Shown here: positions 1 through 7,970 of the stretch, piece after piece | Numbering within the stretch: the first letter of the stretch is position 1 | Layout: the number at the start of each line of letters is the position of its first letter | Assembly: GCF_900106695.1 (NCBI RefSeq) | Contig: NZ_FNMZ01000001.1 | Location: 496,001-560,000, forward strand | Origin: Albimonas donghaensis | GTDB lineage: Bacteria > Pseudomonadota > Alphaproteobacteria > Rhodobacterales > Rhodobacteraceae | Direction of reading: 5' to 3' | Length of the DNA stretch: 64,000 bases | Made by a program: the position numbers and the translations under genes | The notes under the pieces: model-generated | The model's database searches: none | What the model saw: the letters and a program-made list of their open reading frames with translations, nothing else | What the model was told of the DNA's origin: nothing

Positions 1-2
1 AG

Positions 3-146
3 CCGGCGACGACGGCGCGGTATGCCCATCTGTCTGATGACCCGTTGCAGGCCGCAGCGGCGACTATCGGTGGACGGATCTCGGTGGCGATGGGCGACGC
101 GCATGCCTCGGGCGAGATCGTCCTCTTGAAGGATTCGATCAGCTGA
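3..146 (+). CDS. Tyrosine recombinase (phage-type integrase), C-terminal end only
   Basis: The last 47 codons of a protein that begins before the window. The stretch TTARYAHLSDDPLQ is the hallmark C-terminal segment of phage-type tyrosine recombinases; the Tyr in ARYAHL is by family knowledge the nucleophile that forms the 3'-phosphotyrosyl bond during strand exchange. The open frame ends at the TGA at 144–146. The enzyme would integrate and excise the element whose other end lies at the tRNA-Thr gene near 7.9 kb. The rest of the catalytic pocket (R-H-R) is outside the window, so activity cannot be judged. Confidence 0.85.
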   Translation, partial: PATTARYAHLSDDPLQAAAATIGGRISVAMGDAHASGEIVLLKDSIS

Positions 147-322
147 AGCTTTGGGCCTACTCTGGTCGTCCATGCTTCGAGAACAGGCCGCGCTAGAGAT
201 CAGGATTCATTCTCACGGGTTGAAGCTCCTTACGTCGAGGAGATGGACGTGACCTACGTGTAATTAGTGCTGGACAAGCGAAGCTAAACGCGTAATCTTG
301 CAATCTGGAGAGTGGGAAATAG

Positions 323-347
323 CGCCTCGGGGTTCCCGGGGCGTTTT
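323..347 (+). terminator. Rho-independent terminator downstream of integrase
   Basis: A nine-pair stem (323–331 with 335–343, one T·G wobble) closed by a 3-base GTT loop and followed directly by four T residues. It would end integrase transcription. Confidence 0.7.
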
Positions 348-432
348 GCATTTCGCCTTCCCCGTGCGCGTCGGATTTGTCCGGACGCGACCAGCCCCGC
401 CAGCGCCAGAAACCTACGAGCACGAAAACTGA

Positions 433-464
433 GCCTCCGCCGGCGACCGGCGCGGGGCCTTTTT
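433..464 (+). terminator. Second Rho-independent terminator just upstream of alpA
   Basis: An 11-pair GC-rich stem (433–443 with 447–458, one bulged base at 453, loop CGA) followed by five T residues at 460–464. It ends only 34 bases before the alpA start, so it either isolates alpA from read-through or acts as an attenuator in the alpA leader. Confidence 0.65.
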
Positions 465-498
465 GCGTTGGCATCTCCCCATCCCTGAGAGGTCCCTT

Positions 499-693
499 AT
501 GAACCTGCTTGTGCAACGCAAGCGGCTGCTCAGCCGTGACGAAATCGAAGCCGAATACGGCATCACTCGCCGCTGGCTCGAACTGGCCGCCCATCGCGGA
601 GACGGGCCGCCAATGCGAAAAATCTCCCGCCGCATGGTCCGCTATGAGCGGTCCGAATTTGAGGCGTGGCTCGGCGCGTCGCGGGTGGATTGA
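499..693 (+). CDS. AlpA/excisionase-type small HTH DNA-binding protein
   Basis: A 64-residue protein whose layout matches the AlpA / winged-helix excisionase class: an N-terminal helix-turn-helix (RLLSRDEIEAEYGITRRWLE, residues ~9–28) followed by a short basic wing (KISRRMVRYERSEFEAWL) that places the conserved YxxSEFEAWL end typical of this family. Such proteins bend DNA at attachment sites or activate the integrase/primase genes of prophages and satellites. The ATG at 499 has GAGAGG about 9 bases upstream, which is why I prefer it over in-frame codons further upstream. It lies 3 bases before the next small ORF and leads the alpA–primase operon. Confidence 0.75.
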   Translation: MNLLVQRKRLLSRDEIEAEYGITRRWLELAAHRGDGPPMRKISRRMVRYERSEFEAWLGASRVD

Positions 694-696
694 CCG

Positions 697-939
697 ATGG
701 CGGAAAAGAACGAAGCCCGGCGCGCGGACAGGCGCGACCGGGCCTCTGGAAAGCCTTCGCGAACGGCGCGGCTTCCCGAGACCATAACGTTCACAATTTC
801 AAGTGTCATCTGCGACGTTGCCCGCGATACGTGCGAGAGCCGCAGGATGGGCGACGTCACCTGTCGCAGCTGGTTCAGTTCCGTGACGTCGGCGCGATCA
901 ACGCGCATACTCGGGAACATCGGGAGGGCCGAGGGATGA
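697..939 (+). CDS. Small hypothetical protein coupled to alpA and primase
   Basis: An 80-residue basic, Arg/Ser-rich ORF. I do not recognise a family. Support for it being real is positional: its ATG follows the alpA stop after three bases and its TGA overlaps the ATG of the PrimPol gene (ATGA), so all three would be translationally coupled. Composition is low in hydrophobic residues and high in charged ones, with three Cys residues or fewer and no clear fold. It could instead be a chance open frame spanning the leader of the primase gene. Confidence 0.45.
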   Translation: MAEKNEARRADRRDRASGKPSRTARLPETITFTISSVICDVARDTCESRRMGDVTCRSWFSSVTSARSTRILGNIGRAEG

Positions 940-3395
940 CCCACGATGGAACCTTTCACACCGATGCCGCAGCGGCGGCGTTTGCGCTCGCCAAGGCGGG
1001 GCTCCCGGTGTTTCCCTGCGACGGTCGACCGAAGCCGCTCGCCGAGCAACGCTACCCAGACGAGCCGCGCAAAACGCCTCTCACGCCGCATGGCTTCAAG
1101 GACGCGACCGCGGACCTGGATACCGTCGCGAACTGGTGGCGACGTTTCCCCGAAGCGTTGCCGGGCGTCCCGATGGGGGTGGCGTCGGATCTCTTCGTTG
1201 CGGACGCCGACATAGATCGCGAAACGGGCGAAACGGCAGGAGAGGCGACGCTCGCCGCGCTTGGCATTACACCCGCGAACCACATGTATTGCGCGCCGAC
1301 CCGCTCGGGGGGGTGGCATTTCATCTTTCGGTGGCGCAAGGGCCTGCCCGGAAACAGCGTGAAGGGGCTTGTTGGCGTCGATATTCGCAGCGAGGGCGGC
1401 TACGTGGTCGCCTGGGCTCACGAGGCGCTGATCGCCGCCCACGAGGCCGCGGACCTCAAAGGGCCGCCCAGCGCCCTCCTGTCGGCGCTGGAGCGCGCGA
1501 AGGATGCGGGCAGGCGCAGCGACAAAGGTGGGCGTGGGGGCTTCAAGTTCGATCACGTTGGGTGTGATCCGTTCTTCTCCGCCGTTAAGGCTGCGGCGCT
1601 CGCCAATCTGGGTGCATGGGTTCCGCGGATCTTTCCCGCTGCGGACTTTCAGCCTGGGACCGGGGCATGGCGCGTCTCGTCGCGCGTCCTCGGCCGAGGG
1701 CTGCAAGAAGATCTGTCGCTGCATCCAGACGGCATCCGGGATTTCGGCGAGGAAGCGCCGATGACCGCAATCGACGTGGTTATGCGTTGGGGCGGCGCGG
1801 CGACGCCGCTAGAAGCCGCGGACTGGCTTTGCAACGCGTTGGGCATTGATCCTGCGAATAAAGGACAGGGCGCGCGCGCCGGCGCGCTGGTGAGGGCAGG
1901 CGATAACGACTGGCCCGAGCTTGTCCCGCTCGAAGGCGGCGACCTGCCGCGGCTTTCGCCCGATATGCTGGGCGGATGGCTCGGCGACTATGCGTCGGCG
2001 CTCGCGACCTCTACGGAAACGCCGTTCGAGATGGCGGCCTGCCTTACCCTCGGCGCGGCTTCGGTGGCGGCGGCGCGGCGCGTCCGGGTGCGCGTGAAGC
2101 CCGACTACTTCGAGCCCTGCAACCTTTGGCTTCTCCCGGCGCTGGCCCCGGGCAACCGGAAATCGGCGGTGGAAAAGGCGGCGGCCCGCCCGCTTCGTGA
2201 TTGGGAGCGGGAGAAAGCCGAGGCGATGGCGAGCGAGATCGCGGTATCGGCATCCGAGCTGGAGGTGGCGAAAGGGCGTTCCAAGGAGTTGAAGGCGCAA
2301 GCCGCGAAAGCAAAGAGCGACACCGAAGCGCGCGACCTCGCCCGGAAGGCGGCGGAGATCGAAAGCGCCGCGCCTGAGCCCCCGCGGCCGCCTCAGCTCT
2401 GGACCTCAGACGCCACGCCCGAGAACCTGGGCGTGCTTCTCTCCGCGCATGGCGAGCGCATGGCGTGGCTCTCCGCAGAAGGCGGGTTCTTCGAGATCGT
2501 CGGCGGGCGATACTCGAAAGGCGTTCCGAACCTCGATCTCATGTTGAAGGCCCATGCAGGCGACGCGGAGCGGGTGGACCGGATTGGGCGCGCCCCCGTT
2601 TATCTGCGCGAGCCGCTGCTTACGGTCGCCATGTCGCCGCAACCGGACCTGTTGCGGGGGCTTGTGGCGAAGCCGGGTTTCCGGGGCCGGGGTCTTCTGG
2701 GGCGGTTCCTCTACTTCCTGCCGTGGTCGCCGCTCGGCTGGCGCAGTCTGGACGCGGAGCCAACGCCCGAGCCCGCCAAGGCGGCCTATGACAGCGGGCT
2801 TCGCTCCATGCTGGATTGGCCCGAGGGGTATGATCGAAGCGGCGAGCCTTGCCCGCATGTCATCTCGCTTTCGCCCGGAGCCTTCGAGGAATGGCTTTCC
2901 TTCGCCAAGCGGTTCGAAGCCCGAATGCGGCCGGGAGGCGACTTCGAGAACGCCACCGACTGGGCGGGCAAGGCCCCCGGCGCAGCGGTGCGCGTCGCTG
3001 GAGTGCTTCACGCCGCGGACCATTCGGGGGGGGCGCCCTGGATGACCGATGTTCCTCGCGAGACGATGGAACGAGCAATTGCCTTCGTCGAAGTCTCTGC
3101 CGCCCATGCGCTAGCCGCGTTTCGCCTGATGGCGGCGGACGAAGGCTTGGCGGCTGCCGAGCAAGCTTGGGCTTGGATGCGCCGCCGTCACAAGCGCAGC
3201 TTCGTCGCCCGTGATCTTTGGCAAGGTCTGAAGGGTTCAGCGGCCTTCGCGACAATGGCGGACGTGTCGTTGGCGTTGGAACGACTTGTCGAGCGTGGAT
3301 ATATCGCCATCGCGCGAGATGGTCGGGGCAGACCTGGGCGGCCTGCAAGCCCGACGATCACGGTCCGCCCCGACCTTTCGGCGGATTGGGATTGA
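936..3395 (+). CDS. Bifunctional primase–polymerase / DUF3987 replication protein
   Basis: An 819-residue protein. Residues ~10–200 form a PrimPol domain: the DhD catalytic pair is visible in LFVADADID (D90, D92), followed by GGWHFIFRW, which carries the conserved His/Arg strand. Residues ~330–375 look like a PriCT-type linker. Residues ~410–720 match DUF3987, a P-loop-related domain (APGNRKSAVEK in place of a canonical Walker A) found next to PrimPol in mobile elements; a charged coiled coil lies around 440–500. The protein would prime or replicate the element. I chose ATG 936, with GAGGG upstream and ATGA overlap with the preceding ORF, because the frame upstream of it has no domain content. 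The final 25 residues are Gly/Arg/Pro-rich. Confidence 0.85.
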   Translation: MTHDGTFHTDAAAAAFALAKAGLPVFPCDGRPKPLAEQRYPDEPRKTPLTPHGFKDATADLDTVANWWRRFPEALPGVPMGVASDLFVADADIDRETGETAGEATLAALGITPANHMYCAPTRSGGWHFIFRWRKGLPGNSVKGLVGVDIRSEGGYVVAWAHEALIAAHEAADLKGPPSALLSALERAKDAGRRSDKGGRGGFKFDHVGCDPFFSAVKAAALANLGAWVPRIFPAADFQPGTGAWRVSSRVLGRGLQEDLSLHPDGIRDFGEEAPMTAIDVVMRWGGAATPLEAADWLCNALGIDPANKGQGARAGALVRAGDNDWPELVPLEGGDLPRLSPDMLGGWLGDYASALATSTETPFEMAACLTLGAASVAAARRVRVRVKPDYFEPCNLWLLPALAPGNRKSAVEKAAARPLRDWEREKAEAMASEIAVSASELEVAKGRSKELKAQAAKAKSDTEARDLARKAAEIESAAPEPPRPPQLWTSDATPENLGVLLSAHGERMAWLSAEGGFFEIVGGRYSKGVPNLDLMLKAHAGDAERVDRIGRAPVYLREPLLTVAMSPQPDLLRGLVAKPGFRGRGLLGRFLYFLPWSPLGWRSLDAEPTPEPAKAAYDSGLRSMLDWPEGYDRSGEPCPHVISLSPGAFEEWLSFAKRFEARMRPGGDFENATDWAGKAPGAAVRVAGVLHAADHSGGAPWMTDVPRETMERAIAFVEVSAAHALAAFRLMAADEGLAAAEQAWAWMRRRHKRSFVARDLWQGLKGSAAFATMADVSLALERLVERGYIAIARDGRGRPGRPASPTITVRPDLSADWD

Positions 3396-3829
3396 TGGAT
3401 TGCCAACACCGCTGGGCGTCCGCGTGCGACCCGAACGTTCTCCCCGTTTCCCCCATTTCCCCCCAAATGCGCGGTCGCGTGCCATTCCGGGGGAAGCGGG
3501 GGATATGGGGGAAGGGGAACGCGCACCGCTTTTTGTCCCGCACTACGCGCCCGCGCAACCGTCGCTCTGATGCCCGATATTGCGGCGAGGCTTGTCGGAA
3601 ACGGGCGGCGCGGGGGAGGGGCGCGCGAGGTCAAGGCGGAGGGAATGCCGGGCGATTGGGCCGCTCTGGGGAGGCGGCTGACACACGGCCTGCGTGGGAA
3701 AGGTCTCTTGCCTTTGAGCAATGGCAGGCCGGAGGGGGGGGCGTTGATCCTCCGGCTGATTGGATCGGGGACCGGCGAGGAAACGCAATTTCCCGCGTCC
3801 ACAGTTTGAGGCATGACGCGCCCATGTAA
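3395..3829 (+). CDS. Small Cys-containing protein, possible zinc-binding element protein
   Basis: A 144-residue ORF whose ATG overlaps the primase stop (TGATG), so it would be coupled to it. The only recognisable segment is SDARYCGEACRKRAAR (about residues 58–73), which resembles the DARYCSxxCRxRA zinc-binding motif I know from small proteins of alphaproteobacterial integrative elements; two more Cys lie near the N-terminus. The rest is Arg/Gly-rich and crosses the G/C-tract region at 3441–3517. It may be a degraded version of the element protein, or a chance frame around a genuine short motif. Confidence 0.45.
   Translation: MDCQHRWASACDPNVLPVSPISPQMRGRVPFRGKRGIWGKGNAHRFLSRTTRPRNRRSDARYCGEACRKRAARGRGARGQGGGNAGRLGRSGEAADTRPAWERSLAFEQWQAGGGGVDPPADWIGDRRGNAISRVHSLRHDAPM
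3441..3517. repeat. Paired C-tract and G-tract array (potential G-quadruplex / hairpin)
   Basis: On the plus strand there are three C-runs of 4–6 bases (3442–3445, 3450–3454, 3459–3464) spaced by about 9 bases, and 25 bases later four G-runs (3489–3493, 3498–3502, 3507–3511, 3514–3517) with the same 9-base period. The right half fits the G4 motif; the left half is its C-rich counterpart, so the two can also pair as an imperfect hairpin. It lies at the primase / next-ORF junction. Confidence 0.7.
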
Positions 3830-4231
3830 GGGGGAGGGGGGCGGAGAATCTCTAGCCCGTCGAAGCCGGGACCGGCGTGGATAGGCGAACTCCTACGCTA
3901 ACACAGGTTTTGGCCTCGCCACGTGCGCATGGCGGAAGCTTGCGGGCGGAGGCGCGCAAGGCACGGCGATACGGTCGGCCTTCAGCGGCCTCACGGAAGA
4001 CCGATGCACCCACTTCAAGCTCTGCCTCGGCGCTGATGCCGTTAGGCGCCGGTAGGGGTCCTTCCCCAAAGTTCAGCCCAAGGGTGGTTCGGGCCTTGGG
4101 GTCGATCTAGGCGCAGAAAAGCCCCAAGGGGGTTCCGTCCGCAGGCAATTGGAACCACGCCTTTTGAGGCGTGGTTTGATGCGCGACCGTATGGGGGAAT
4201 GCGGGACGGACTTCGAGCATCGTTGCTGCCG
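3830..4231. other. Gene-poor gap between converging primase and methyltransferase operons
   Basis: About 400 bases with no ORF that looks coding on either strand. A hairpin at 4153–4176 sits just beyond the methyltransferase stop codon. Otherwise I see nothing recognisable. Confidence 0.5.
4153..4176 (-). terminator. Hairpin downstream of the restriction–modification gene
   Basis: A perfect nine-pair inverted repeat (AACCACGCC / GGCGTGGTT) with a 6-base loop, 55 bases past the stop of the minus-strand gene. There is no strong T-run on the minus strand, so it may be a weak or Rho-assisted terminator. Confidence 0.4.
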
Positions 4232-7200
4232 TCAGAGCGCGTAGCGGCCTTCTCCCGTCATCTCGGCCATGCCAAGGCCGGCGAGTGTTTCCAGCAATGG
4301 CTCGACGGTCGTTGCGCGCCCTCGGAGGAAGGTGCGGGCCACGGCTTCGGCATCGGCCTCGCCCAACGTCTCCAGCGCCTCGCGAACCGCGGCGATCTGG
4401 GCGGGCAGGGTTTTGGGCCACGCGGCCTTGCCGGTCTGGGCTTTCGCGGTGATGGCGAGCGTTCCGGACTTGGCCCCGGCCGCGCGACCGTCGGGGTTCT
4501 GGTATTCGGGGCGGAGCCAGCGGACCTGGCCCTGCGCCTCCTCTTCGGCGCGCTCGCGATTGAGGGCGACGAGATTTTGAAGGAGGTCGTTTTCGGGCAG
4601 GTCGACCGGCCAGCCATAGGCCTCGGCCACGGCGGCATCGATCCGGTCGTGAATGTCGCGTAGCAGGCCGACGAGGCCGTCGTCGTAAATCTGCTTGTCC
4701 TTGCCATCGATCCGCTCGCCGGCCCGGAGTTTTTCGAGGACGTTATACATCTGGGTCAGGGTCAGTTTGGGATGCCGCGCCTGGCGGTCTTTTCGGTGGG
4801 CGTCAAGTTCTTCGCCAAGGTTGCGAAGGGTGGTGCGCTGAGAGGGCGTGAGAACGGGGAAGGGAAATGGATCAAAGCAGCGGGATTTGACGTAGACCGG
4901 GTCATTGCCGACGCCAAGTCTACTACCTGAGGCGAGAGACCAAGCAACATGTTGCTTACAAGAGAGCGTGGCAAGTATTGATGAATCATCGATGGCAATG
5001 GCTATGAGCTTATTGTCGGGCAGAATGCTGCGATCTAGGAAGTAAAATAGCCGATGTTTTGCTGTTTCGACGGTGGCAATATATCGAGAAATATTGTCTA
5101 GGGCGAGCCTTAAGTCTTTGCGAGGCTCTCCGAAAATCCACCAATCGCGACGGTAGATTTCTCTCGAATTCTGATCGCGCTCGGGTTTCACATGATCAAG
5201 CAAGTGCTGATAGACCGAAGGAAACGCCGATCTCACCGCGCTCTCCGAAAGCCCGTATAGGTCGATGACCATTACTCCGCGGGGAGTCGACGTAAGGTCG
5301 CGACCGTTCCGATATGATCGGACATGCGCTTCGACGTCTTTGGTCGAGCCACGGATAAGTTCCCTTGCCTTCTCCGGCGAAACTATGAACCCGGCACCGT
5401 GAAGCTTCACACCAGGGGATGCGATGCTATGGTTCGCCATCAGCGAAGTTGCGCTTCCAACGTCAGCGCCAATCCGTAGGTTTGAGAAGAGAAGCCCACG
5501 TTCCGCCGACAACTCGACCGCACGCCCCTCGGCCTCGTTCCGCTCGCCACTCTCCTTAGTCACGGTCACTAGCCGCCCAGGCCGCGTTCCCGACGCCCCT
5601 ACCGTCATGCCGATCCGCACTGCCGCGCCGTCCACGGTATCGACCCAGGGGTGATCGGGGATGGCGAACAATAGTGAAAGCGGATGTTTGGCGTCGCCGA
5701 GATGCGGCTCCAGCACACGGCGATTGAAAGTTTGTCGTAAGCTATTCGTCGTGATCAGCCCGAACCGCCGCAAGCCAGCGGAGCCGTCAAAAGCGCGGGC
5801 CTTCACCGCCGCCTTCTCCCACCAGAACATCACCAGATCGGCGCTCTGCGGCATCTTCGGATAGGCTCGCCAAAGCGCTTCCACATAGCCGTCGCCCAGC
5901 GCCTCGCGCATTCGGCTCGCCCCGATGAACGGCGGATTGCCGACGATGAAAGTCGCTTCGGGCCAAGCGGCGGGGCGCGGGTCGGCGTAGTCGAAAATCT
6001 GCACGCGCGCCGAAGGGTCGGGGACCTCCTCCCCGGTCGCGGGATGGCGCATCGTGGTCACGCCGTCCCAGCGGGTGACGGGCGCGCCGGCCTCGTCCAT
6101 TCGCGGCGTGCGGCCAGTCCAGGTCAGCACCGCGTCGCGATGCTCGATATTGCGGAAATCGCGCAGGATCGGCTCGGAGGGCGCGGCCTTGCCGTGGGTG
6201 CGATAGTGCCATTGCAGGTAGCCGATCCACAGCACAAGCTCGGCCACGTTCGCCGCCCAGGGGTTCAGCTCGATCCCGAGAAACTGGTGCGGGTCGACGG
6301 TATGCCCGGCAAGCCCGAGACTCGCCTGCGCTTCGCCCAGCTCCTCCAGCGTGGCGACGACTTCGCCTTCGAGGCGCTTCATCAGTTCCAGCGCAACGTA
6401 GAGGAAGTTACCCGAACCGCAGGCCGGGTCCAGAACCGTGATCTCGCAAAGCTTGCGGTGAAAGTCGCGAACCGCGTCCAGCGCCTCCTTGTTCTTGCCC
6501 TGGCTGCGGAGGAGATCGGCCGCGGCTTGCACGTCGCGCCAGTCGGAGCGGAGCGGCTGGATGATGGTCGGCATCACCAGCCGCTCCACATAGGCGCGGG
6601 GCGTGTAGTGCGCGCCCAGCTTGTGCCGGCTCTTGCGGTCAAGCGCGCGCTCCAGCAGCGTTCCGAAAATCGCGGGCTCGACTTGCTTCCAATCGGCGTC
6701 GGCCGCCTCGATCAGAAGGCCGAGTTGCATGGCCGTGAGGGGCAGGGCTTTCGCGTCGCGGAAAAGGCCGCCGTTGAAGCGCAGGAGGCGCGCCATCAGA
6801 ACGGGGGAGTTGCCGCCCGTGTTCATCGTCTCCCATAGCGATTGCAGGACGGGCTCGGCCATTTCGGGGCGGCCGCGCAGCTCGCGCAGCTTGTCGCGGA
6901 AGGAGTCCTTCGGAAGCAGCTCGACGTCTTCGGCGAACATCGTGAAGAGGCAGCGCATCAGGAAGCGCGCGACCGTTTCCCCGTCATGGCCCTGGCCCTC
7001 GAAGCTTTTGCCAAGTTCGGCGAGATGGGCGGCGATATCGCGGGTGACTTCGGCAGCGCGGCGGGAGGGGTCCAGCGAGAAAGGATCTTCCCAGACGGTG
7101 CGGAGCCGGTCGCGCACGGCCTCGTCGCGCAGGTCTTCGAGCGTGATCCGGTAGCGGTTGCCGTCCGGAAACTGAGTGTAGCCCTGACCCTGACCCGAGA

Positions 7201-7672
7201 AGTCGGCGTGAACCTCGATCATGTTCCCGACGTCCACGATCAGCAGGAAGGGGGGCCAGCCATCTTCCTTCGAGACGGAGCGTGCATAGCCGTCCGCTTG
7301 GTTGCGTGCTCGAAGCAGGGTGTCCTCGAAAGCGCGCGTTCCACGGCGGCCATGTCCGGTCCGGTTGGCCGTGCCGCTGCCAGGGAGAAGGTCCAGTTGC
7401 TCCGCCTCGGCTTTGGGGCCTGCGCCTTGCTTGGCTTCCATGATGAAGCAGCGACGGCGATAGAGGTCTATCCGCCTTTTGCGACGGTCGCCGGTATGCG
7501 TTTCCGTCACCGGGCGTTCGAAGCGATAGTCGTCTGTTTGGCCGTCGCTTTGGGCCGGCTTAGGCGGGGCGACGCCGATCAGGGCGCAAAGTTCATTCGC
7601 GAATGTCTGGAAATTGGCGATCTCGCTGCCGCCCGAGGCGCGCCAGCGGGAAATGAAGTCCTCGATCTGCAA
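4232..7672 (-). CDS. Single-chain restriction–modification enzyme (MmeI-like, type IIL/IIG) with N6-adenine methyltransferase
   Basis: A 1146-residue protein. The N-terminus carries a PD-(D/E)xK-like nuclease signature, RRIDLYRR…FIMEAK (about D69, E79, K81). A helical spacer follows, then the methyltransferase with SAM motif LDPACGSGNF (~414–423) and catalytic NPPF (~579–582), which is the DPPY/NPPY class that methylates adenine N6. The region ~750–940 would be the target-recognition domain and is noticeably AT-richer than the rest; the last ~100 residues look like a winged-helix tail. One-protein architecture with nuclease, methylase and TRD is that of type IIL enzymes, though MmeI itself is shorter (~920 aa). 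Start: an in-frame GTG at 7723 and ATG at 7705 exist, but the TTG at 7672 has AGGGAG about 9 bases upstream and begins directly at the conserved QIEDFISRW helix. It stands alone and converges on the primase operon. It could be modification-only if the nuclease site is dead. Confidence 0.8.
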   Translation of the reverse strand: MQIEDFISRWRASGGSEIANFQTFANELCALIGVAPPKPAQSDGQTDDYRFERPVTETHTGDRRKRRIDLYRRRCFIMEAKQGAGPKAEAEQLDLLPGSGTANRTGHGRRGTRAFEDTLLRARNQADGYARSVSKEDGWPPFLLIVDVGNMIEVHADFSGQGQGYTQFPDGNRYRITLEDLRDEAVRDRLRTVWEDPFSLDPSRRAAEVTRDIAAHLAELGKSFEGQGHDGETVARFLMRCLFTMFAEDVELLPKDSFRDKLRELRGRPEMAEPVLQSLWETMNTGGNSPVLMARLLRFNGGLFRDAKALPLTAMQLGLLIEAADADWKQVEPAIFGTLLERALDRKSRHKLGAHYTPRAYVERLVMPTIIQPLRSDWRDVQAAADLLRSQGKNKEALDAVRDFHRKLCEITVLDPACGSGNFLYVALELMKRLEGEVVATLEELGEAQASLGLAGHTVDPHQFLGIELNPWAANVAELVLWIGYLQWHYRTHGKAAPSEPILRDFRNIEHRDAVLTWTGRTPRMDEAGAPVTRWDGVTTMRHPATGEEVPDPSARVQIFDYADPRPAAWPEATFIVGNPPFIGASRMREALGDGYVEALWRAYPKMPQSADLVMFWWEKAAVKARAFDGSAGLRRFGLITTNSLRQTFNRRVLEPHLGDAKHPLSLLFAIPDHPWVDTVDGAAVRIGMTVGASGTRPGRLVTVTKESGERNEAEGRAVELSAERGLLFSNLRIGADVGSATSLMANHSIASPGVKLHGAGFIVSPEKARELIRGSTKDVEAHVRSYRNGRDLTSTPRGVMVIDLYGLSESAVRSAFPSVYQHLLDHVKPERDQNSREIYRRDWWIFGEPRKDLRLALDNISRYIATVETAKHRLFYFLDRSILPDNKLIAIAIDDSSILATLSCKQHVAWSLASGSRLGVGNDPVYVKSRCFDPFPFPVLTPSQRTTLRNLGEELDAHRKDRQARHPKLTLTQMYNVLEKLRAGERIDGKDKQIYDDGLVGLLRDIHDRIDAAVAEAYGWPVDLPENDLLQNLVALNRERAEEEAQGQVRWLRPEYQNPDGRAAGAKSGTLAITAKAQTGKAAWPKTLPAQIAAVREALETLGEADAEAVARTFLRGRATTVEPLLETLAGLGMAEMTGEGRYAL

Positions 7673-7894
7673 TGTGTTGTTCTCCCTGTTAGGGGGACGT
7701 TGCATGCGACGGCGGCTTGCCACAATGGCTTTTCCGACTTGCTCGATATGCGAGCGGACAGAGCGAAGCTCCTGCGCACCCGATTAGGCGGATGCCGCGA
7801 CCCGCCGGTGAAGGCGAGATCGGTAGTGGTGTTGGACCGGGGTTGGACGGCTAGCCGTCCGGGTTTTCGATAGCCCTATAAGCTATTGAAATTA
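7673..7894. other. Element–chromosome junction next to tRNA-Thr
   Basis: The gap between the methyltransferase start and the tRNA 3' end. It contains a perfect 16-base palindrome (7845–7860, GGACGGCTAGCCGTCC) and a smaller inverted repeat (ATAGC/GCTAT, 7870–7886) next to the tRNA. The right attachment site is expected at or inside the tRNA 3' half. The assignment is an inference: the partner repeat is outside the window. Confidence 0.45.
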
Positions 7895-7970
7895 TGGCGC
7901 CGGTCGAGGGGCTCGAACCCCCGACCCCCTGATTACAAATCAGGTGCTCTACCAGCTGAGCTAGACCGGC
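7895..7970 (-). tRNA. tRNA-Thr (anticodon UGU)
   Basis: A 76-base cloverleaf on the minus strand: acceptor GCCGGTC pairs with GACCGGC, D-arm with AGCTCAGCTGGTAGAGC, anticodon stem CCTGA/TCAGG around loop TTTGTAA giving anticodon TGT, variable loop, T-arm with GGTTCGAGCCC, and an encoded CCA at 7895–7897. The 3' end faces the integrated element, the usual polarity for integration into the 3' half of a tRNA gene. Confidence 0.95.

What the first reader, a model, noticed from the sequence alone, without database searches (positions are those of the whole stretch)
1..7894. Satellite-like integrative element at tRNA-Thr with a restriction–modification gene at its attachment end
Seen: recombinase end, AlpA-like HTH, PrimPol/DUF3987 protein, small Cys protein, then an opposite-facing RM gene that stops at the 3' end of tRNA-Thr(UGU). 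Known: int–alpA–primase is the core of gram-negative phage satellites (PICI), and tRNA 3' ends are common att sites. Inference: the island is a phage satellite or small integrative element that carries its own anti-phage enzyme next to attR.
Basis: partly seen in the sequence, partly recalled or inferred. Interest (0 to 1): 0.65.

Follow-up and report, generated by a model that had tools for sequence, protein, structure and literature searches.

The report
Phage-satellite-like island with swappable restriction gene
A small mobile DNA island sits in a transfer-RNA gene of this bacterium, carries integration and copying genes like those of known phage parasites, and has a slot beside the tRNA in which related islands swap restriction enzymes.

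Summary
Observation confirmed; interpretation right in outline, refined in kind. A 46-bp copy of the tRNA-Thr(UGU) 3' half (one mismatch) lies 1.3 kb left of the window, outside a complete tyrosine-integrase gene, so the island is 9.23 kb: att, int, alpA, orf80, Prim-Pol/DUF3987 primase, orf144, MmeI-type restriction-modification gene, tRNA-Thr. A same-genus species has a relative at the same tRNA (int 78%, AlpA 88% identical) whose MmeI gene is only about 31% identical and inverted. Of 39 further family loci fetched by their primase, 29 have int-alpA-DUF3987 in this order; 20 of the 29 abut a tRNA and all 20 repeat its 3' end beyond int. MmeI and primase trees conflict, so the restriction gene is swapped between islands. 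PICMIs sit at fis, so this is PICMI-like, not a PICMI. Excision, packaging by phage and restriction are inferred, not shown. The 'small Cys protein' looks like a remnant. New variant of a known kind; interest 0.5.

The parts
1..146 (+). 3' end of the tyrosine integrase gene; the rest (from G000:C16:494812) and the far att repeat (C16:494663-494708) lie left of the window
499..693 (+). alpA-like gene, 64 aa, HTH_17
   Evidence: 88% identical to the G001 copy over 57 aa
697..939 (+). orf80; first 50 residues 48% identical to a 136-aa gene at the same place in the G001 island; overlaps the primase start by ATGA
936..3395 (+). primase gene, Prim-Pol plus DUF3987
   Evidence: 15-residue match to the G001 zinc-ribbon protein, E 0.001; PHROG match 6e-4, unknown function
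4232..7723 (-). MmeI-type (type IIL/IIG) restriction-modification gene, 1163 aa, the cargo
   Evidence: Pfam MmeI domains; PADLOC type IIG, 1626 bits; solved MmeI 5hr4, E 5e-36
7829..7848 (.). two GTGTTGGAC-like repeats at 11-bp spacing, second with one mismatch; three exact copies at the integrase end (L009 10827, 10838, 10849); probable integrase arm sites
   Evidence: exact pairs at both ends of the G001 island at the same distances, about 47 and 119 bp from the att repeats
7895..7970 (-). tRNA-Thr(TGT), intact; attachment gene
7896..7941 (-). att repeat, tRNA-end copy (46 bp)

Best explanation
A 9.23-kb PICMI-like integrative element in tRNA-Thr(UGU), most probably a phage satellite. Shown: two att copies, int-alpA-primase order, a related island at the same tRNA in a sister species, many related islands in the family, and exchange of the MmeI cargo between islands with different cores. 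Inferred: the integrase binds the GTGTTGGAC arms, inserts the circle at the tRNA 3' half and leaves the tRNA whole; a helper phage raises AlpA, which drives excision; the Prim-Pol/DUF3987 protein starts replication; the helper packages the DNA without any packaging gene of the element. The MmeI-type enzyme marks host DNA and cuts unmarked DNA of incoming phages. The space between primase and tRNA is a cargo slot whose restriction genes are replaced independently of the replication core.
For: att copies. G001 island, same tRNA, 48-bp repeat, int 78%, AlpA 88%, cargo MmeI about 31% and inverted relative to the core. 29 of 39 family loci with int-alpA-DUF3987 on one strand; 20 of 29 with a facing tRNA, 20 of 20 with a repeat of its end beyond int. 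Cargo G+C below core G+C in 20 of 22 islands. MmeI tree against primase tree: G000+G001 rejected on MmeI, p-AU 1e-45; G001+L103 rejected on the primase, 1e-6. Same plan as PICMI, with RM systems among the defence genes reported between prim and fis (PMC10803314, passages). A type II-G RM gene of an int/alpA island was shown by deletion to protect against a phage (PMC12595487 section 8). No structural gene among the five proteins of the island searched in PHROGs.
Against: No mobility, helper or activity observed. The att copies differ at one base in the anticodon loop, which may hinder excision. G000 lacks the gene that follows int in G001; in PICMI115 such a gene (iolg) is needed for excision, though three PICMI subfamilies lack one. 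orf144 looks decayed. Integration at fis, a PICMI hallmark, is not met. Viral contigs gave no circular copy (29 loci checked, only 7 of them whole contigs) and no relative of the integrase. 4 of 39 loci have room but no integrase, and 9 of 29 have no facing tRNA in view. MmeI is also common outside such islands (408 plasmid records; 5 of 24 chromosomal loci without a tRNA in view).
Confidence: 0.7

Rival explanations
1. A small integrative element that spreads by other means: mobilised in trans by a conjugative element through an oriT-like site, carried by general transduction, or taken up by transformation; not a phage satellite.
For: No packaging or interference gene was recognised; only one phage portal gene was found in the genome, so no resident helper is evident. 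Similar int/alpA islands of Pseudomonas are moved by jumbo phages without known transfer genes (PMC12595487, abstract).
Against: The int-alpA-DUF3987 set is the one shown necessary in PICMI, whose helper is a virulent phage, so a resident prophage is not needed. No relaxase came up in the Pfam, PHROG, NCBIfam or PADLOC searches of the island proteins; an oriT was not searched for.
Confidence: 0.2
2. A decayed, now immobile copy: the tRNA repeat has mutated, accessory genes are lost, and only the restriction gene is under selection.
For: One att mismatch in the anticodon loop; remnant-like orf144, shortened orf80 and missing HGG and post-int genes compared with G001. Broken integrase in a relative (L113).
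Against: Integrase, AlpA, primase and MmeI frames are open and full-length; end repeats are kept.
Confidence: 0.25
3. The MmeI gene serves mainly to keep the island in the cell (loss is punished) rather than to stop phages.
For: Restriction genes are recurrent cargo here: MmeI in 4 and type III RM in 2 of 22 complete islands.
Against: Nuclease and methylase lie in one polypeptide, so both should fade together after loss (inference); the tested island RM gene of this broad type gave phage protection.
Confidence: 0.12

Closest known systems
PICMI, phage-inducible chromosomal minimalist islands of Vibrionaceae (Barcia-Cruz et al. 2024, PMC10803314; passages and section 10 read)
   Same: int, AlpA (PF12728 is in their model) and DUF3987 primase in this order; int at the far end; small size; defence systems including RM between primase and att
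   Different: tRNA-Thr instead of fis; Prim-Pol fused to DUF3987; larger than their Vibrionaceae mean of 6.7 kb; helper and packaging unknown; alphaproteobacterial host (inferred)
I55-type islands of Pseudomonas (Zhao et al. 2025, PMC12595487; abstract, sections 6 and 8 read)
   Same: intY and alpA island at the end of an RNA gene, flanked by direct repeats, with a type II-G RM gene
   Different: tmRNA site, roughly under 20 to over 70 kb, RadC/YqaJ core instead of a DUF3987 primase as far as read
Gram-negative PICI (Fillol-Salom et al. 2018, PMC6092414; passages read)
   Same: integrase, AlpA, primase
   Different: no packaging or interference gene recognised here, no divergent int/regulator pair, another primase type
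MmeI, type IIL restriction-modification enzyme (solved chain 5hr4)
   Same: order of nuclease, spacer and methylase domains; aligns at 231-504 and 589-994
   Different: 1163 against 919 aa; target-recognition domain matched only weakly (E 0.028), recognition site unknown

Membership tests
PICMI | colocalised int, alpA and DUF3987-type primase | tested here: met
   AlpA model just under its Pfam cut-off
PICMI | integration at fis (called a hallmark by the authors) | tested here: not met
   att repeat is tRNA-Thr; hence PICMI-like only
PICMI | accessory defence genes between primase and att | tested here: met
   MmeI at 4232-7723
PICMI | induction and packaging by a helper phage | not testable with these tools
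   no helper known; viral contigs uninformative
Gram-negative PICI | packaging function (terS or helper cos) and phage interference genes | tested here: inconclusive
   no such gene among five island proteins; cos not searchable without a helper
MmeI / type IIL enzymes | MmeI_N, helical spacer and methylase domains in one chain | tested here: met
   all three above cut-off
MmeI / type IIL enzymes | nuclease D...ExK and methylase motifs I and IV (roles recalled) | tested here: met
   D86, E96, K98, DPACGSGNF 432-440 and NPPF 596-599 shared with the 31% identical G001 enzyme
MmeI / type IIL enzymes | restriction and methylation activity | not testable with these tools
   needs expression and methylome
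tRNA-integrated genomic island | intact tRNA at one end, copy of its 3' part at the other, tyrosine integrase inside | tested here: met

The most novel reading that the evidence does not exclude
The tRNA-side end of these islands is a docking slot for restriction genes that move between unrelated islands on their own account: islands aiming at the same tRNA land in tandem, and recombination between shared att copies replaces the cargo but leaves the replication core, so that tRNA 3' ends act as exchange hubs for type IIL restriction specificities across a bacterial family.
Probability: 0.3. Interest if true: 0.7.

Novelty: new variant of a known kind. Interest (0 to 1): 0.5.

Why it matters
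The PICMI authors report complete PICMIs only in Vibrio and only at fis. Here the same gene plan, aimed at tRNA genes, recurs in a large family that looks alphaproteobacterial, so the plan may be much wider than described; but their looser search also gave 68 elements outside Vibrionaceae (135 minus 67), whose list I did not see and which may include such islands. The MmeI swap between islands with unrelated cores is a clean, testable case of defence genes travelling apart from the satellites that carry them.

Tried and rejected
Gram-negative PICI as the label: replaced by PICMI-like after reading passages on both. Conserved ancestral locus: not supported; G001 has a related but different island and G002 another recombinase ORF at this tRNA. 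Cargo inherited with the core: rejected by the trees. Packaged copies: the single-protein primase query found two weak viral-contig hits, the integrase alignment none, the DUF3987 alignment 26 loci, the Prim-Pol/DUF3987 alignment 80 kept of 275, mostly Prim-Pol alone. Of 29 loci checked none has terminal repeats, but only 7 are whole contigs, so this is a weak test; 6 of 29 show int-alpA-prim in order. Resident helper: one Phage_portal match, not identified further. Empty site: none found; only two same-genus genomes came up among 60 relatives, both occupied, and the left flank has no match in the two stretches fetched. Promoter and terminator scan near shuffle levels. Recognition sequence of the enzyme, oriT and cos sites: not attempted. 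Papers: no description of int-alpA-DUF3987 satellites in this family came up in the listings; this covers only the held open-access library, and for two of these over 1,200 papers matched and 12 or 15 were listed.

Selections: I fetched 39 DUF3987 loci; 17 further DUF3987-region hits (mostly partial) and the Prim-Pol-only hits were not fetched. In one search the stretch searched for the far repeat was set by hand for L104 (integrase start over-called) and L113 (integrase broken), using repeats seen. Of the MmeI hits I examined 24; fragments in G140 and G368 and the hits of about 40-43% identity over a part of the protein were left out. The AU tests use groups suggested by the other gene, chosen after I had seen the identity table.
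Full report
What is there. The window is G000:C16:496001-560000. A 46-bp near-copy of the 3' half of tRNA-Thr(TGT), one mismatch in the anticodon loop, lies at C16:494663-494708; the other copy is window 7896-7941. Start to start they are 9,233 bp apart. Between them: a 444-aa tyrosine integrase (C16:494812-496146; only its last 146 bases in the window), a 64-aa AlpA-like HTH protein, an 80-aa ORF, a Prim-Pol/DUF3987 primase, a 144-aa ORF, and on the other strand a 1163-aa MmeI-type restriction-modification gene that starts 172 bp from the tRNA. orf80 and the primase overlap by ATGA, the primase and orf144 by TGATG. GTGTTGGAC repeats at 11-bp spacing stand at both ends: three exact copies at the integrase end, one exact and one with a mismatch at the tRNA end. 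The sister island has exact pairs at both ends, at the same 47-48 and 119 bp from the att repeats. This fits arm-type integrase sites (inference).

The sister species. G001 has, at the same tRNA-Thr and next to the same glyQ flank, an island whose 48-bp repeats are 10,080 bp apart. Integrase 78%, AlpA 88%, primase 61% over its length with an unalignable central linker. Its MmeI gene holds the same slot but runs with the core instead of against it, and is 31-32% identical in local alignments, 37% in the global one. G001 also has a 221-aa gene straight after int, a 136-aa gene after alpA, an HGG-motif protein and a complete zinc-ribbon protein; G000 has only parts of the second and fourth. G002 has another recombinase ORF ending at this tRNA, recognised by eye; my integrase profile did not match it.

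The family. The primase matched 70 of 394 family genomes, the rest of them far weaker than the own copy. I fetched 39 DUF3987 loci from 37 genomes and searched them with profiles grown from the G000 proteins. 29 of 39 have an integrase upstream on the primase strand; six of the ten misses meet a contig end within 3.4 kb, four (L115, L123, L127, L135) do not. 37 of 39 have alpA. Of the 29, 20 have a tRNA (Ser 9, Arg 3, Leu 3, Thr 2, Phe, Ala, Asn) whose 3' end faces the island; nine have none in view. All 20, and G000 and G001, share at least 13 nt between the tRNA end and the stretch beyond int, against 3 of 366 control pairs. Sizes run from 5.6 to 13.0 kb. Most of the seven relatives listed in full have a protein of about 295 aa before DUF3987, Toprim_3/DUF7146 in the one I scanned (L112), where G000 and G001 have a fused Prim-Pol. 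The priming domain itself is thus exchangeable.

The cargo slot. Between primase and tRNA, G+C is lower than in the core in 20 of 22 complete islands, in some by very little; L129 and L134 go the other way. Contents: MmeI in G000, G001, L103 and L112 (also in the cut loci L100 and L108), type III Mod/Res pairs in L104 and L133, a KAP NTPase in L126, and in L110 only 308 bp. Of 81 other cargo and accessory proteins scanned, PADLOC families were hit 14 times, each by one protein. PHROGs gave 50 families, of which the 25 shown include no head, tail or packaging name; the other 25 were not shown.

Cargo against core. G000's MmeI is 66, 63 and 51% identical to those of L100, L112 and L108, but 32% to G001's; G001's is 63% identical to L103's; L103 and L112 have 86% identical integrases but 30% identical MmeI. 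On the MmeI tree, holding G000+G001 or L103+L112 together is rejected (p-AU 1e-45, 2e-57); on the primase tree, which joins G000 and G001 with full support, G001+L103 is rejected (1e-6).

MmeI beyond these islands. 36 of 394 genomes match at 1e-60. Of 24 loci examined, 11 have a tRNA within 600 bp of the MmeI gene; at the window's density of one tRNA in 64 kb about 0.5 would be expected, a rough yardstick. A tRNA is in view in 19 of 24, and in 18 of these 19 the nearest turns its 3' end to the MmeI gene. Of 20 newly fetched loci, 7 have a far repeat of the tRNA end (14-53 bp) and 11 an integrase or alpA match. So MmeI is a frequent passenger of tRNA islands of several kinds. It is also on plasmids (408 records) and only weakly in phage records (9).

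How it most likely works. In PICMI115, int, alpA, iolg and prim are needed, AlpA expression alone starts excision, and the helper's full-size particles hold concatemers without packaging genes of the satellite (PMC10803314, passages). The same gene set and order make the same cycle the best reading here. The restriction step rests on conserved domains and motifs and on the I55 island, where deleting a type II-G gene removed phage protection (PMC12595487 section 8).

Limits. No mobility, helper or activity was observed. The att mismatch and missing accessory genes leave open that this copy is decaying. It is not filed as a PICMI because the fis hallmark is not met. The PICMI authors' looser search also gave 68 elements outside Vibrionaceae that I could not inspect, so islands of this kind may already be on their list.

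Noticed in passing
window 936-3395; L040 6757-9168; L112 8180-10551: The priming part differs between related islands: Prim-Pol fused to DUF3987 in G000 and G001, a separate Toprim_3/DUF7146 protein before DUF3987 in relatives; the linker differs even between G000 and G001.
   Followed up: partly
L074, L075, L079, L082, L083: Gammaproteobacterial loci (e.g. Thiohalobacter, Arhodomonas) hold a DUF3987 protein 50-54% identical to the window's, with an alpA match and a ~300-aa protein before it; some end near a tRNA.
   Followed up: partly
L171 3730-12012; L180 7961-11762: Two other genomes have MmeI in islands at tRNA-Thr(TGT), the tRNA used here, with other cores.
   Followed up: partly
L113 5003-6210; L177 7890-11453; L184 2007-5455: Apparently broken genes: an integrase (L113) and MmeI genes (L177, L184) split over frames.
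   Followed up: no
L120 6718-7520; L040 5724-6477: A zinc-ribbon protein with an ending like RRADARYC..ACRKR beside a protein with an HGG..TG.RTPEG motif recurs after the primase; function unknown.
   Followed up: partly
L041 15078-16577 (G002): A different recombinase-like ORF ends beside the same tRNA-Thr in a third species of the genus; its island was not bounded.
   Followed up: no
G000:C16:918013-918999 (L291): The only phage portal match in the genome; perhaps part of a gene transfer agent, not identified.
   Followed up: no
L110 5236-10936 and L112 5183-14629: Two related islands at tRNA-Thr(CGT): one with 308 bp after the primase, the other with MmeI in that slot.
   Followed up: yes
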